Shown piece after piece: positions 41,499-46,908 of a stretch of 62,902 nucleotides of DNA. Position 1 is the stretch's first letter, and the number at the start of each line of letters is the position of its first letter. Where the stretch lies: contig JAMPXY010000002.1 of NCBI GenBank assembly GCA_023700945.1, positions 1 to 62,902 of the forward strand, in the 5' to 3' direction. The notes under the pieces are model-generated. The model was not told where the DNA came from. It made no database searches and saw only the letters and a list, made by a program, of their open reading frames with translations. The translations under genes were made by a program, and so were the position numbers. This stretch comes from Alphaproteobacteria bacterium (lineage in GTDB: Bacteria; Pseudomonadota; Alphaproteobacteria; Micavibrionales; Micavibrionaceae).

Positions 41499-42482
41499 AT
41501 GAGTAAGGACAATGACATCCGGACGAAAGTCCTGATTATCGGTTCCGGCCCCGCCGGATACACAGCCGCGATCTATGCCGCCCGCGCCAACCTGAAACCG
41601 GTTCAGGTTCTGGGGCTGCAACCGGGTGGGCAGCTAACCATTACAACCGATGTCGAAAACTACCCCGGATTCGCCGATATGATCCAAGGCCCGTGGCTGA
41701 TGGAACAGATGAAGGCGCAAGCCGAACATGTTGGTACCACCATGGTGTACGATTACATCACTGACGTTGATTTCAGCAAGCGCCCCTATATCTGCAAAGG
41801 TGATACTGGCGCGACCTATATCGCCGATACCGTGATCATCTGCACTGGCGCCAAAGCCCGCTGGCTGGGCCTGCCCGAAGAAAAAACTTTTATGGGTCTG
41901 GGTGTTTCAGCCTGCGCCACCTGTGATGGATTTTTCTATCGTGGCAAAGAAGTCGCCGTGATCGGCGGCGGTAACAGCGCCGTGGAAGAAGCCCTTTTTC
42001 TGACGAACTTCTGCAACAAAGTGACGTTGATTCATCGTCGCGACTCTCTCAAGGCGGAAAAAATCGCGCAGGATCGCTTGTTCAACAATCCCAAAATCAA
42101 CGTGATCTGGGATAGCGCGGTTGAAGAAATACTGGGCAACCCGCAAGGGCAGGATAATCCCGGCGTCACCGGCCTCAAGATCAAAAATATCCGAACTAAT
42201 GAAGTCACGACATTATCCGTGCACGGCGTCTTTATTGCGATCGGTCACGACCCCGCCACCGAAATATTTAAAGGCAAGGTCAAGATGGACGAGCACGGCT
42301 ATATCTTAACCGCCCCCGATTCAACCACTACCGATATACCCGGTGTCTTTGCCGCAGGCGATGTTAAGGATAAAATATATCGTCAGGCTGTGACGGCGGC
42401 AGGCATGGGGTGTATGGCAGCACTGGAAGCGGATCGTTTTATTGCCACCGAAGAGGCCGCACATGCGGCCGCTGCTGAGTAA
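41499..42482 (+). CDS. trxB: Thioredoxin-disulfide reductase
   Basis: 327 residues. It reduces thioredoxin with NADPH through FAD and a Cys pair. The FAD-binding motif is VLIIGSGPAGYTAAIYAARA, the active-site pair is Cys139-Ala-Thr-Cys142 (SACATCDGFFY), and the NADPH-binding site is VAVIGGGNSAVEEAL. DIPGVFAAGDVKD near the end is the second FAD contact. It is 61 bp after the ELM1-family gene and 37 bp before a LysR gene. Confidence 0.96.
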   Translation: MSKDNDIRTKVLIIGSGPAGYTAAIYAARANLKPVQVLGLQPGGQLTITTDVENYPGFADMIQGPWLMEQMKAQAEHVGTTMVYDYITDVDFSKRPYICKGDTGATYIADTVIICTGAKARWLGLPEEKTFMGLGVSACATCDGFFYRGKEVAVIGGGNSAVEEALFLTNFCNKVTLIHRRDSLKAEKIAQDRLFNNPKINVIWDSAVEEILGNPQGQDNPGVTGLKIKNIRTNEVTTLSVHGVFIAIGHDPATEIFKGKVKMDEHGYILTAPDSTTTDIPGVFAAGDVKDKIYRQAVTAAGMGCMAALEADRFIATEEAAHAAAAE

Positions 42483-42519: not shown

Positions 42520-43410
42520 ATGGACTGGGACAAGCTGCGTATCTTTCATGCCGTGGCAGAAGCAGGCAGTTTTACCCATGCCGGTGATGCCCTCAATCTC
42601 AGCCAGTCGGCCATTTCACGTCAGATCAGCACGCTTGAGGAATCTCTGGGCGTTACACTGTTTCATCGCCATGCCCGTGGTCTGCTGCTGACCGAGCAAG
42701 GTGAACTGCTACAAAAAGCCGCCAAGGATATATTTGGCAAGCTGGCGATGATCGAAGGCCAATTGATTGACTCGCGGCAATTGCCCGAAGGGCCGCTCCG
42801 CATTACCACCACCGAATTTATCGGTGCCAGCTGGCTGGCACCACGTCTGGCCGATTTGCGCAGCCAGCACCCCGATATACAACTGACACTCCTGATGGAT
42901 GACCGCGTCTTGAACTTATCAATGCGCGAAGCTGATGCTGCCATACGTCTGTACAAACCTGAACAGCCTGACCTGATCCAGCGCCATCTGGCAACCATCC
43001 AGTTCCATATCTTCGGCAGCAAAACCTATTTTGAAAAGCATGGCCGCCCGGCAGAAGCAAAAGATCTCAGAGATCACGTTCTGATCGGTTACCCCGAAAA
43101 CGCCCCACAACCCTTTATGGATTCCAACTGGCTATTCCGCGTTGCCGGGGTTGATCCGCAGGAACACAATAACCTGATCATGATGAACTCGCTCTACGCC
43201 ATTCGCCAAGCTGTTGAAGGGGGAGCCGGGCTGGGTTTGTTACCTGATTTTATGGCTAATGAAGACGAATCTCTGGAAATCGTCCTGCCGAATCTGCAGC
43301 CAGTCAGCGTGGACATGTATTTTGTCTACCCGGAAGAGCGCCGCCACTCACAAAGACTTGCCATATTCAGGGATTTTCTTCTAAAACATGTCGGTATCAC
43401 TGCATTTTGA
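42520..43410 (+). CDS. LysR family transcriptional regulator
   Basis: 296 residues. The N-terminal helix-turn-helix (residues 1-60) reads WDKLRIFHAVAEAGSFTHAG, ALNLSQSAISRQISTLEESL, GVTLFHRHARGLLLTEQG. A LysR substrate-binding fold follows (about 90-290), with GGAGLGLLPDFMANEDESLE. The ligand is unknown. It lies 37 bp after trxB on the same strand and might regulate it, but thioredoxin reductase control by it is only an inference. A 414-bp gap with a probable RNA gene follows. Confidence 0.94.
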   Translation: MDWDKLRIFHAVAEAGSFTHAGDALNLSQSAISRQISTLEESLGVTLFHRHARGLLLTEQGELLQKAAKDIFGKLAMIEGQLIDSRQLPEGPLRITTTEFIGASWLAPRLADLRSQHPDIQLTLLMDDRVLNLSMREADAAIRLYKPEQPDLIQRHLATIQFHIFGSKTYFEKHGRPAEAKDLRDHVLIGYPENAPQPFMDSNWLFRVAGVDPQEHNNLIMMNSLYAIRQAVEGGAGLGLLPDFMANEDESLEIVLPNLQPVSVDMYFVYPEERRHSQRLAIFRDFLLKHVGITAF

Positions 43411-43574
43411 TAACCCGGCTGAAAGAAAGATCGTTCATTCTGAAACGCCTTCCTCTGCTTTTCTGGGAAGGCCATCGGATAAAAAACGTCTAACTAATTG
43501 ATTTAAAACCAATATTTTAAAAATTTTGCACCGCGCCAAAGATATGCATTTTATACAATTCAGGCATGCATAAT

Positions 43575-43718
43575 TACCTCTAGCTCTCGAGAGTCGTCCC
43601 AGTATATAAAGCGGCCATCGACATTCCGATGTCGATGGGATCCTTCGGGGTCCTACGTCTCCCAGACGTGAAACCTCCCTGTTCAACTCGCCGGGTCGTA
43701 ATGACCCGGTTTTTTTTT
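43575..43718 (+). ncRNA. Candidate small RNA with four hairpins and intrinsic terminator
   Basis: Within a gene-free gap (43411-43824) a run of stable hairpins ends in a strong terminator. Hairpins: CCATCGACAT/ATGTCGATGG (43615-43638, 10 bp, loop TCCG); GATCC/GGGTC closing a TTCG tetraloop (43639-43652); ACGTCT/AGACGT (43655-43669); and the terminator. Before them is the palindrome CTCTCGAGAG (43584-43593). The link AAACCTCCCTG (43671-43681) holds an unpaired CCTCC, complementary to Shine-Dalgarno GGAGG. The 5' end is uncertain. I recognise no Rfam family. A leader of the next gene is less likely, since that gene has its own promoter. Confidence 0.6.
43691..43718 (+). terminator. Strong intrinsic terminator of the candidate small RNA
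   Basis: CCGGGTC / GACCCGG, a 7-bp stem with loop GTAAT (43698-43702), followed by nine T residues (43710-43718). Confidence 0.95.
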
Positions 43719-43824: not shown

Positions 43825-45096
43825 ATGAGTAATACTAACGAGCATAACCCGCAGAAAACCACCATTGCCCTCTTTACATATGGCGGCGGCATGCGCGGGC
43901 TGATACCCGCCCATATCATGAGTCGAATCGAAGACAAGACCGGCCTGCGCATGGCCGACATGGTTGATATCTTCACTGGCCCTTCAACGGGCGCCATCCT
44001 TAATGCAGCCATGACATTGCGTCACCCGGAACACACCAGCAGCCCGCGATTCCGCGCCCGGCATATGGTCAAATTCTACGAACGCGAAGGTCATAAAATT
44101 TTCCCCGCGGATCGCTTCCGTGAATTTCGTGGTATCGTTCACGATTTCAACAACCGCACCCTCAAGCTCAACCAGTTGAACTGGCTCTTCCGCCATGGTC
44201 ATTACGACCCCTCTAATCTCGGTCGTGCGCTTAAAGCGCTTTATGGTCAGGCGCGCTTGTCGGAATCGTTACGGACACTGGTAATCCCCACTTACAATCT
44301 TGATGGTGAACAACTCAGAGTTCTCGAGACCGATGAGGGTGGCGGGCATGACTGGGTAGCACGGGGCCGCGCCTCACTGGATGATTACGGCGGGCACGCC
44401 CTGTGGATGAGCAATATCCGCCATATCGCACAAGGCGGCCCTAGCCTTCGCACCCCTGATGTCAGCCTCTACGATGCGGTCATGGCCAGTTGTGCGGCCC
44501 CTACCTATTTCCCCTGCCATCACTTCAAGGCACGCTATCCCGGCAAGAAAGAAATTTCCTACACAGGGATAGATGGATGCGTCTTTGACAACCCCTGCGT
44601 CAGCTATCTGGGATCCATTCGCAAAATGGTACCGGCAGAAAACAAATTGGTCATGCTGGTGCTGGGGACGGGCTATACGAACAAAGCGATCAAGAAAGAT
44701 GACTGGAACAGTTACGGCGCGTTGGGTGTGGTGGACCCGGTCAATGATCTGCCCTTGATCAACATTTTCTTCCATGCGGCGGAATCAGCCCTGATGGAAA
44801 GCTTTGTTGATGACCTAGGGCGCGATCTCTATGTCTTCAATAGTTCCATCCTGCCGGAAAGCGGGCGCACTGATATTCCCAGTCCACAGATTGATGATGC
44901 CAGTCCGGAAAATCTGGAAAAAATGCGCCTTTTTTCCGAGACCTTGATGGAAGAAAACAGCGGTCAGATGGATGATATCTGCCATATCCTCGCCAGCAAC
45001 CGCGACCGTCGTGAAGAAGAACGCCGCCAAAGCAGCATTGGCGACCGGGTGAAGAAATATTTCACTTTCTTCGGCGAACGCGAAACCGTTGAATAG
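43825..45096 (+). CDS. Patatin-like phospholipase (intact catalytic motifs)
   Basis: 423 residues, no signal peptide. The oxyanion-hole loop is FTYGGGMRGLIPAHIM (Gly20-Gly25), the nucleophile elbow is GPSTG with Ser54, and the Asp of the Ser/Asp dyad is in GIDGCVFDNP (Asp250-Gly251, with Cys where most have Gly). These predict a lipid acyl hydrolase. The C-terminus (LMEENSGQMDDICHILASN) is shared with the next gene. It has its own promoter after the small-RNA terminator. Targets (own lipids, host or prey membranes) are unknown. The next gene is a diverged paralogue 162 bp away. Confidence 0.88.
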   Translation: MSNTNEHNPQKTTIALFTYGGGMRGLIPAHIMSRIEDKTGLRMADMVDIFTGPSTGAILNAAMTLRHPEHTSSPRFRARHMVKFYEREGHKIFPADRFREFRGIVHDFNNRTLKLNQLNWLFRHGHYDPSNLGRALKALYGQARLSESLRTLVIPTYNLDGEQLRVLETDEGGGHDWVARGRASLDDYGGHALWMSNIRHIAQGGPSLRTPDVSLYDAVMASCAAPTYFPCHHFKARYPGKKEISYTGIDGCVFDNPCVSYLGSIRKMVPAENKLVMLVLGTGYTNKAIKKDDWNSYGALGVVDPVNDLPLINIFFHAAESALMESFVDDLGRDLYVFNSSILPESGRTDIPSPQIDDASPENLEKMRLFSETLMEENSGQMDDICHILASNRDRREEERRQSSIGDRVKKYFTFFGERETVE

Positions 45097-45258: not shown

Positions 45259-46908
45259 ATGACGCAAACTCATGCGTCTGCCACAGAGAGAACAGAAGAG
45301 ACCTTAGCCGACAGGGCGCAACACACGGTGCTACTCAAACGCCGGGCGGTCTTTCATCTCTACGGTCAGGGTGGCGGCGTCTTGGGTCGTATCCCGATCC
45401 TCGTTGGTGCCGATATTGAAAAAAAAATCGAGACCCCGCTCGGGATCGCTTTTCAAGTCAAAGAAGGAGCCTCGACCTCTGGCCCCTTGGTCGCCGGGAT
45501 CAGCATCCCCCACCCGCTTGATCCGCATCAGCCGAAATATTCCTGCGAACAACTGGACCGTCGTTACGTTGAAGATTGTCCAGTGCTGTTCCCCGAGAAA
45601 CCCAATCGCCTGTATAAAATGTTTGCAGCCAACGCCATCAATCTGGCCGAACGCATGATCGACCCTGCCAAAGTCAAGGCCGATCAGATGTTCATTGAAT
45701 CTATCAAGCGTCACTGCGAAGCCTTGCTGACAGAATTGCCCAGTGACAAAGTCCCGTTAGTTCATACCCTGCGCGAAAAATCAACTAAACGCTGGATGAC
45801 ACGTGCTGACACGCAAGCTGCGCTTAAGATATGTGGCAAACTGGGGCTCGGAGACTCTGGTGACAGCAAAAAGAAAATAGCCCCCTACGACCCCACATCA
45901 GCCACACTAGACCTCACTGCACGTATTGGAGGCCTGATCACCCGACGCAGCACCTCGAAGCATGGAGAACTGACCACCCTGTTCAAACGTGCGGCTGTCG
46001 CCAGCATGGATATGGTTAAAAAACACTGGGCGCCGCGGGAAAGCCGTATGCACGACCCTGATACGCGCCGCACGATTTTCCAAGAGGCTATGGGCGATGC
46101 CCGCCTGAGTGAATGCATTGGCTCGGTCTATTTTGCAGCCTTTGATACACGCCGCATGACTTTCCTGCCATTTTATGCCCGCAAGGACAATCTGTTCGAT
46201 ACAGGCATGAACGCCCCGGCGACCACCTTCCCGCACGACCTCAAGGTCTGGGATGCCGCCATGGCCACATCCGCTAATTTGCTGGCTTACCCGCCTCATC
46301 GCACAGAAGGCGGTGTGATTGCCGCCGACAAGGCCACGCTGCACACCTCCATTTTTGTGATTTCAGACATCATCCGTCACAAGCCCGAGGATGCCGATGT
46401 AATTTCTGTGACCTTGGGCACAGGCGAACATGTCACCGATGACATTGATGATGACGAATTGTTTGATCATTATGCCGAAAACAACGAAATTGGGAACGAA
46501 CGTATTCTCGAAGAAGCGAAAGCCTATGCCAATACTTCGGCCAACATGGCCGCAGGCAATCTGATTGGTGAGAAAAACATTTTTGTCATTTCACCACGGA
46601 TGTCCTGGCGCAATGAAGAGGAATTCCTTGAGTTTCCCTCCGCTGATATCACGGACGCTACCCCAGAGAACATGGAAAAAATTGAACACCGCGCCCAGAA
46701 GTTGATCACGGAAGAAGAACGAAAAATCAATCACGTCTGCCAGATGCTGGCCGACAATCTTTACCTGCTAGGCCTGATGGATCGGGAAAAATTCGACCGC
46801 GTCACTGAACGTCTCGGGGTCAAGGCAGCGCTGGAGAAGGATAACTACATCGCCACGCACTACCCTTATGTAGCACGCTATCTGCGGAGCCAACCCCAGC
46901 CAGATTAG
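45259..46908 (+). CDS. Diverged patatin-like paralogue with altered nucleophile elbow
   Basis: 549 residues, about 125 longer than its upstream neighbour. Shared blocks are VFHLYGQGGGVLGRIPILV versus ALFTYGGGMRGLIPAHIM; GDARLSE versus GQARLSE; and TDATPENMEKIE, INHVCQMLADN versus DDASPENLEKM, MDDICHILASN. The expected GXSXG is GASTSG at 70-75, which has no Gly two residues after either serine, and the DG motif is Asp-Lys (AADKATL). An insert of about 100 residues (roughly 80-210) is unlike the neighbour. It may be inactive, regulatory or have different chemistry. Possibly co-transcribed with the first. Confidence 0.75.
   Translation: MTQTHASATERTEETLADRAQHTVLLKRRAVFHLYGQGGGVLGRIPILVGADIEKKIETPLGIAFQVKEGASTSGPLVAGISIPHPLDPHQPKYSCEQLDRRYVEDCPVLFPEKPNRLYKMFAANAINLAERMIDPAKVKADQMFIESIKRHCEALLTELPSDKVPLVHTLREKSTKRWMTRADTQAALKICGKLGLGDSGDSKKKIAPYDPTSATLDLTARIGGLITRRSTSKHGELTTLFKRAAVASMDMVKKHWAPRESRMHDPDTRRTIFQEAMGDARLSECIGSVYFAAFDTRRMTFLPFYARKDNLFDTGMNAPATTFPHDLKVWDAAMATSANLLAYPPHRTEGGVIAADKATLHTSIFVISDIIRHKPEDADVISVTLGTGEHVTDDIDDDELFDHYAENNEIGNERILEEAKAYANTSANMAAGNLIGEKNIFVISPRMSWRNEEEFLEFPSADITDATPENMEKIEHRAQKLITEEERKINHVCQMLADNLYLLGLMDREKFDRVTERLGVKAALEKDNYIATHYPYVARYLRSQPQPD

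What the first reader, a model, noticed from the sequence alone, without database searches (positions are those of the whole stretch)
43575..43718. Undescribed structured RNA gene upstream of two patatin-like genes
A 144-bp stretch in a gene-free gap contains a 10-bp hairpin, a UUCG-capped hairpin, a 6-bp hairpin and a strong intrinsic terminator. It has an unpaired CCTCC that could pair with Shine-Dalgarno sequences, as in anti-Shine-Dalgarno small RNAs of alphaproteobacteria. The downstream patatin has its own promoter, so this looks like an independent RNA. The structure is seen directly; the regulatory role is inference. I found no match to a family I know.
Basis: partly seen in the sequence, partly recalled or inferred. 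Interest (0 to 1): 0.62.

Follow-up and report, generated by a model that had tools for sequence, protein, structure and literature searches.

The report
Small RNA paired with LysR regulator
A short RNA gene sits just after a gene-switch protein called a LysR regulator, keeps a 37-letter stretch unchanged in every close relative compared, recurs beside the same regulator across a large bacterial class, and probably silences other genes by covering their ribosome-binding sites, as the AbcR RNAs of rhizobia and Brucella do.

Summary
The structured RNA is real, but its context is different from the one reported. The RNA runs from about 43614 to 43718 (about 105 nt): two variable hairpins, a near-invariant hairpin, an invariant single-stranded stretch ACCUCCCUGUUCAACU and a terminator. 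The reported first ~40 nt are promoter. Covariation supports the stems (12 of 30 pairs change on both sides; 0 of 500 shuffles match). The conserved neighbour is not the patatin (23 of 30 relatives) but the gene pair trxB-LysR just upstream. LysR is present in all 29 relatives whose contig reaches it. Across Alphaproteobacteria, in 83 of 103 sampled genomes with both listed, the RNA lies 123-1007 nt downstream of the same LysR. The LysR matches VtlR/LsrB, which in Rhizobiaceae and Brucella activates the adjacent sRNA AbcR1. The promoters carry an ATGC-N7-GCAT dyad (22 of 27 exact; 0.07% in shuffles) and the published LsrB motif at the published position. No Rfam model reaches its cut-off here; the nearest is SorX (31 of 46.6 bits), and Rhodobacteraceae copies beside the same LysR do pass SorX. 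Best reading: a VtlR-controlled, trans-acting anti-Shine-Dalgarno sRNA that works like AbcR and is related to SorX, probably an old alphaproteobacterial module. Transcription, LysR control and targets are inferred.

The parts
41499..42482 (+). trxB, thioredoxin reductase, first gene of the conserved trio trxB-LysR-sRNA
   Evidence: TIGR01292 413 bits, above its cut-off; upstream of the LysR gene in most relatives
42520..43410 (+). LysR-type regulator, counterpart of VtlR/LsrB; candidate activator of the sRNA
   Evidence: Pfam HTH_1 and LysR_substrate; directly upstream of the RNA in all 29 relatives whose contig covers it; 44.8% identical to the LysR between trxB and tandem AbcR genes in G456
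43544..43558 (+). LysR-type dyad ATGC-N7-GCAT (here ATGCATTTTATACAA, second half decayed)
   Evidence: exact in 22 of 27 non-redundant homologous promoters at a fixed distance from the -10; 0.07% in shuffles
43555..43567 (+). position of the published LsrB/VtlR motif GCAT-N3-TG-N3-T (here ACAATTCAGGCAT, 3 of 7 fixed bases differ)
   Evidence: exact in 9 of 27 relatives against 0.28% in shuffles, at the published position -61 to -49 (PMC8844928); degenerate in this copy
43581..43609 (+). sigma-70-type promoter: weak -35 TAGCTC (43581-43586), -10 TATATAA (43603-43609)
   Evidence: the -10 is conserved in homologues; their -35 reads TAGACG, TTGACG or TGGACG
43614..43718 (+). the sRNA (about 105 nt; start inferred from the -10, end from the terminator)
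   Evidence: sequence, fold, covariation and class-wide covariance-model hits
43615..43638 (+). hairpin H1, 10 bp, UCCG loop; variable sequence
   Evidence: 6 of 10 pairs with changes on both sides
43639..43652 (+). hairpin H2, UUCG loop; variable, absent in some relatives
   Evidence: 4 of 5 pairs with changes on both sides
43654..43670 (+). hairpin H3 UACGUCU-CCC-AGACGUG, C-rich loop; near-invariant
   Evidence: alignments A1 and A3
43673..43688 (+). ACCUCCCUGUUCAACU, anti-Shine-Dalgarno seed region
   Evidence: invariant in 30 of 30 relatives; CCUCCC unpaired with median probability 0.93
43690..43718 (+). intrinsic terminator
   Evidence: 2 of 8 pairs with compensatory changes, 99% of cells paired
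43825..45096 (+). patatin-like phospholipase gene; loosely linked neighbour, not part of the module
   Evidence: Pfam Patatin 59.8 bits; downstream in 23 of 30 relatives

Best explanation
The element is an independently transcribed, trans-acting small RNA whose transcription is switched on by the LysR-type regulator encoded just upstream (the VtlR/LsrB counterpart). The regulator binds the dyad upstream of the -35. The RNA then represses target mRNAs by pairing its invariant ACCUCCCUGUUCAACU stretch, and possibly the CCC loop of H3, with Shine-Dalgarno regions; the terminator U-tail would be the usual Hfq-binding end. Shown here: the RNA gene, its structure, its promoter and dyad, and its linkage to LysR across the class. 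Inferred: transcription, LysR activation, Hfq, anti-SD repression and the identity of the targets.
For: (1) Covariation: 12 of 30 pairs with changes on both sides, 94.1% of cells paired, 0 of 500 shuffles reach this; 5' hairpins have a mean z of -3.2. (2) CGUCUCCCAGACG and AAACCUCCCUGUUCAACUCGCCGG are invariant in 30 relatives while H1 and H2 diverge. (3) LysR directly upstream in 29 of 29 relatives; class-wide the RNA is on the same strand 123-1007 nt downstream in 83 of 103 genomes, median 226, and in 79 of 92 named loci. (4) Dyad exact in 22 of 27 promoters against 0.07%; LsrB motif exact in 9 of 27 against 0.28%, at the published position; in 25 of 112 class-wide loci against 1.2%. (5) In G456, trxB-LysR is followed by tandem AbcR genes at the same place with a similar promoter element, GCATAACTGGCATGCACAAA; there LsrB/VtlR is known to activate AbcR1 (PMC7486931, PMC8844928). 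(6) CCUCCC is mostly single-stranded.
Against: No expression data. The LsrB motif in the window's own copy is degenerate (3 of 7 fixed bases differ). In the window sequence CCUCCC has an unpaired probability of only 0.42. A pattern search for mRNAs with extended complementarity gave no recurrent target. Redox sensing as in LsrB cannot be the input: this LysR has no cysteine.
Confidence: 0.74

Rival explanations
1. It is a processed or readthrough 3' end of the trxB-LysR mRNA (a 3'UTR-derived sRNA, as SorX is in Rhodobacter) rather than an independent gene.
For: Same strand, usually ~200 nt after LysR; SorX, the nearest Rfam family, is described as 3'UTR-derived (title of reference 40 in PMC7074977).
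Against: A conserved -10 and an upstream dyad at a fixed spacing lie between LysR and the RNA. In 11 genomes the RNA is 1.7-5.7 kb from LysR, and in 9 it is not linked at all.
Confidence: 0.12
2. It is a cis-acting leader (attenuator) of the downstream patatin gene.
For: It lies ~107 nt upstream of the patatin start, and the patatin follows in 23 of 30 relatives.
Against: In 7 of 30 relatives no patatin was found downstream although LysR and RNA persist; class-wide the RNA core is the same and follows LysR whatever lies downstream. It ends in a strong terminator with no conserved antiterminator seen.
Confidence: 0.04
3. It belongs to the alpha-r8 family (MmgR/SisA, RF00519), which also has a hairpin, CCUCCCU and a terminator.
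For: Same layout and a shared CCUCCCU; 20.5 bits in the window, up to 35 class-wide.
Against: Below the gathering score of 41 everywhere tested; no hit at E<=0.01 in the own genome. Alpha-r8 has UUUCCUCCCU and sits next to an N-formylglutamate amidohydrolase gene (PMC12559287), not next to trxB-LysR.
Confidence: 0.08

Closest known systems
AbcR1/AbcR2 (alpha-r15, Rfam RF02345) of Rhizobiaceae and Brucellaceae
   Same: Locus order trxB-LysR(VtlR/LsrB)-sRNA, similar promoter element, sRNA length, C-rich anti-SD segments (one in a loop, one unpaired), terminator.
   Different: No recognisable sequence homology: RF02345 does not hit this RNA or its relatives above cut-off, and model R2 does not hit AbcR. 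The AbcR-linked LysR carries cysteines; this one has none.
SorX (RF02784) and SorY (RF02651) of Rhodobacter
   Same: Shared ACCUCCCUGUU plus terminator. SorX is the best Rfam match here (31 bits), and Rhodobacteraceae copies next to the same LysR pass the SorX cut-off (48.3-52.3 bits).
   Different: Below SorX's gathering score in the window (31 of 46.6) and in all other orders scanned. SorX is reported as 3'UTR-derived; here there is a dedicated LysR-type promoter.
MmgR / SisA-D (alpha-r8, RF00519 suhB)
   Same: Hairpin, CCUCCCU, terminator.
   Different: Different core flanks and genomic partner; sub-threshold.
NfeR1/Cuckoo-type CCUCCUCCC sRNAs (RFMSmelA075/099)
   Same: Anti-SD motifs.
   Different: They carry CCUCCUCCC in several loops; here there is a single CCUCCC in a linker and a CCC loop.

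Membership tests
AbcR / alpha-r15 (RF02345) | Match to the family covariance model at gathering score (40 bits) | tested here: not met
   No hit in the own genome; 1 of 377 class genomes above the cut-off, and that one is a different genome
AbcR / alpha-r15 (RF02345) | Location directly downstream of trxB-LysR(VtlR/LsrB) | tested here: met
   order in Agrobacterium from PMC7486931
AbcR / alpha-r15 (RF02345) | LTTR motif GCAT-N3-TG-N3-T at -61 to -49 | tested here: inconclusive
   Enriched and correctly placed in relatives (9 of 27 exact against 0.28%), but 3 of 7 fixed bases differ in the window copy
AbcR / alpha-r15 (RF02345) | Repression of ABC-transporter mRNAs through the aSD motifs | not testable with these tools
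   Needs reporters or MAPS; a simple pattern search found no recurrent targets
SorX (RF02784) | Match at gathering score 46.6 | tested here: not met
   31 bits, E 1.1e-5 in a 451-nt search; 26-42 bits in other orders; met by Rhodobacteraceae copies beside the same LysR
alpha-r8 / suhB (RF00519) | Match at gathering score 41 | tested here: not met
   20.5 bits; no hit at E<=0.01 in the own genome
alpha-r8 / suhB (RF00519) | Core UUUCCUCCCU next to an N-formylglutamate amidohydrolase gene | tested here: not met
   Core is GAAACCUCCCUGUU and the neighbour is LysR (definition from PMC12559287)
VtlR/LsrB LysR regulators | Single closest LysR homologue, next to trxB, in AbcR-bearing genomes | tested here: met
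   44.8% identity to the LysR between trxB and AbcR in G456; the only match at E<=1e-40 in that genome
VtlR/LsrB LysR regulators | Redox-active cysteines (C144/C273 in A. tumefaciens) | tested here: not met
   0 cysteines in the window protein; none in 74 of 103 class homologues; residues from PMC11975290

The most novel reading that the evidence does not exclude
This RNA is the ancestral VtlR-controlled sRNA of the Alphaproteobacteria, one family running from Micavibrio and Azospirillum to SorX in Rhodobacter. In Rhizobiaceae and Brucella the same LysR locus and promoter now drive AbcR, so the regulator-RNA circuit is far older than the known AbcR RNAs and than the cysteine-based redox input of LsrB.
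Probability: 0.5. Interest if true: 0.66.

Novelty: new variant of a known kind. Interest (0 to 1): 0.56.

Why it matters
VtlR/LsrB-AbcR is a central nutrient and virulence circuit studied in Rhizobiaceae and Brucella. If the same LysR controls a sequence-distinct anti-SD RNA throughout the class, the circuit's age, what the regulator senses before it gained cysteines, and how one locus changed or replaced its effector RNA become testable by comparison. It also offers a curatable RNA family and a bridge to SorX, and gives obligate predators such as Micavibrio a candidate post-transcriptional regulator; a search of open papers found no small-RNA study of them.

Tried and rejected
Rfam at gathering scores: only a tRNA in the window. 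Alpha-r8 as identity: sub-threshold hits in relatives mostly lack CCUCCC and look like chance terminators. AbcR homology by covariance models in both directions: none. Target search with ACAGGGAGG-N(3-9)-ATG in 38 genomes: some excess over the reversed-pattern control, but no recurrent gene beyond one small membrane protein shared by the two congeners. A first model (R1) had a misplaced terminator stem and was discarded for R2. Papers: no hit for the core sequence; the Micavibrio RNA-seq paper reports no sRNA in the passages found; the SorX paper is not held. Cis-leader of patatin rejected on linkage.

Full report
OBSERVATION. The 144-nt stretch folds at -48.9 kcal/mol against -37.8 +/- 3.5 for dinucleotide shuffles, with 0 of 200 as stable. 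A -10 box TATATAA lies at 43603-43609, so the transcript should start near 43614 and end in the T run at 43718; the first ~40 nt of the reported interval are promoter. The four helices are H1 43615-43638, H2 43639-43652 (UUCG), H3 43654-43670 and the terminator 43690-43710.

CONSERVATION. A blastn search of 95 relatives (same family and order) finds matches in 74 at E<=1, with the strong ones covering the 3' two thirds of the query. Contig lengths identify members of the window's family as Micavibrio-type genomes (for example Micavibrio sp. UBA7657 contig DLHX01000012.1, 219,595 bases, equals G055:C11). In an alignment of 30 homologues, CGUCUCCCAGACG and AAACCUCCCUGUUCAACUCGCCGG are identical in every sequence (apart from one inserted U in one of them), whereas H1 and H2 differ widely. 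H1 and H2 are nevertheless kept as hairpins: the 5' part alone has a mean z of -3.2, below -2 in 26 of 30. On 12 sequences that align well, 12 of 30 pairs show changes on both sides, 94.1% of cells pair (23.6-42.9% when partners are slid), and none of 500 shuffles reaches the covariation score. The structure was taken from the window sequence, which favours it over the slid versions but not over the shuffles on double changes. H3 hardly varies, so its pairing is neither supported nor contradicted by covariation.

NEIGHBOURHOOD. The patatin is a loose neighbour (23 of 30 loci). The LysR gene directly upstream on the same strand is present in all 29 loci whose contig reaches that far, usually with trxB before it. 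A covariance model of H3, linker and terminator (R2) hits 177 of 387 genomes sampled over the class at E<=0.01. A protein search with the window LysR hits 247 of 387. From the listed rows of both searches (150 genomes for LysR, 132 for the RNA, since long lists are cut), 103 genomes have both. In 83 the RNA is on the same strand 123-1007 nt (median 226) downstream of the best LysR, in 11 more within 8 kb, and in 9 unlinked.

PROMOTER. Between LysR and the RNA, at a near-constant -58 to -61 from the -10 in most homologues, lies ATGC-N7-GCAT, a LysR-type dyad. It is exact in 22 of 27 non-redundant loci against 0.07% of shuffles. The published LsrB/VtlR consensus GCAT-N3-TG-N3-T, reported at -61 to -49 of PabcR1 (PMC8844928), is exact in 9 of 27 against 0.28%, most often starting 48-50 nt before the -10, which is about -61 from the start site; class-wide it is exact in 25 of 112 against 1.2%. 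The window's own copy is degenerate (3 of 7 fixed bases differ), so control by LysR in this particular strain is less certain than in its relatives.

RELATION TO KNOWN FAMILIES. In Agrobacterium the order is trxB-vtlR-abcR1-abcR2, and VtlR/LsrB directly activates abcR1 (PMC7486931, PMC8844928). The Rfam model of AbcR (RF02345) is above cut-off in one sampled genome, G456, exactly at trxB-LysR and in tandem. Its promoters carry GCATAACTGGCATGCACAAA and GCATAGCAGGCATGCACAAA, close to GCATAGCTGGCATCGCGAAT and GCATGGCAGGTATGCAAAGA upstream of the RNA here. The RNAs themselves are not recognised by each other's models, so AbcR is a positional and regulatory counterpart, not a demonstrated homologue. 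SorX (RF02784) is the nearest Rfam family by sequence: 31 bits against a cut-off of 46.6 in the window, 26-42 bits in other orders. In Rhodobacteraceae-like genomes (identified by their SorX hits) the copies beside the same LysR score 48.3-52.3 bits, above the cut-off, which links SorX to this RNA. Alpha-r8 (MmgR/SisA) shares CCUCCCU and layout but fails the cut-off and has a different core flank and neighbour.

MECHANISM. By analogy with AbcR, whose anti-SD motifs pair with ribosome-binding sites of transporter mRNAs (PMC8844928), and with SorX and SorY, which affect transport (PMC7074977), the invariant ACCUCCCUGUUCAACU most likely pairs with AGGGAGGU-type leaders and blocks translation. CCUCCC is predicted free with a median probability of 0.93 over 30 homologues (0.42 in the window, where the GGGG of H2 competes). 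The signal is unknown: LsrB's redox cysteines are absent (no cysteine in the window LysR, none in 74 of 103 class homologues, three in the AbcR-linked one), so thiol sensing looks like a later addition. Target searches were uninformative.

VERDICT. A real, independently promoted structured RNA gene, part of a class-wide LysR-sRNA module that is not described as such in Rfam or in the open papers searched. It works like AbcR and is sequence-related to SorX, but does not meet the membership test of either.

Noticed in passing
genomes G291, G331, G457, G295, G426: Several small-genome alphaproteobacteria carry 4-6 matches to the LysR, and G291 also has 5 copies of the RNA (two in tandem), suggesting lineage-specific expansion of the LysR-sRNA pair.
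   Followed up: no
G010:C30, G014:C8, G015:C113, G007:C22: Some relatives have a second, weaker R2 match elsewhere in the genome, possible paralogues of the RNA.
   Followed up: no
43825-45096: The patatin also scores 94.7 bits with the CBASS phospholipase model NF041079 (cut-off 200): related to, but not a member of, the anti-phage effectors.
   Followed up: no
45259-46908: The second 'patatin' has no Pfam or NCBIfam match; only weak tblastn similarity (about 20-32%) to loci of the first patatin.
   Followed up: partly
42520-43410 and class homologues: The LysR has no cysteine, as have 74 of 103 homologues, unlike redox-sensing LsrB of Rhizobiaceae.
   Followed up: partly
NCBI taxonomy entry of Micavibrio aeruginosavorus: NCBI places Micavibrio in Bdellovibrionota, whereas the genome collection used here groups it in the class of Azospirillum and relatives; the shared LysR-sRNA locus agrees with the latter.
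   Followed up: no
G368, G374, G324, G232, G123, G312, G242, G120, G229, G309, G443: In 11 genomes 1.7-5.7 kb separate LysR and the RNA on the same strand, as if genes were inserted between them.
   Followed up: no
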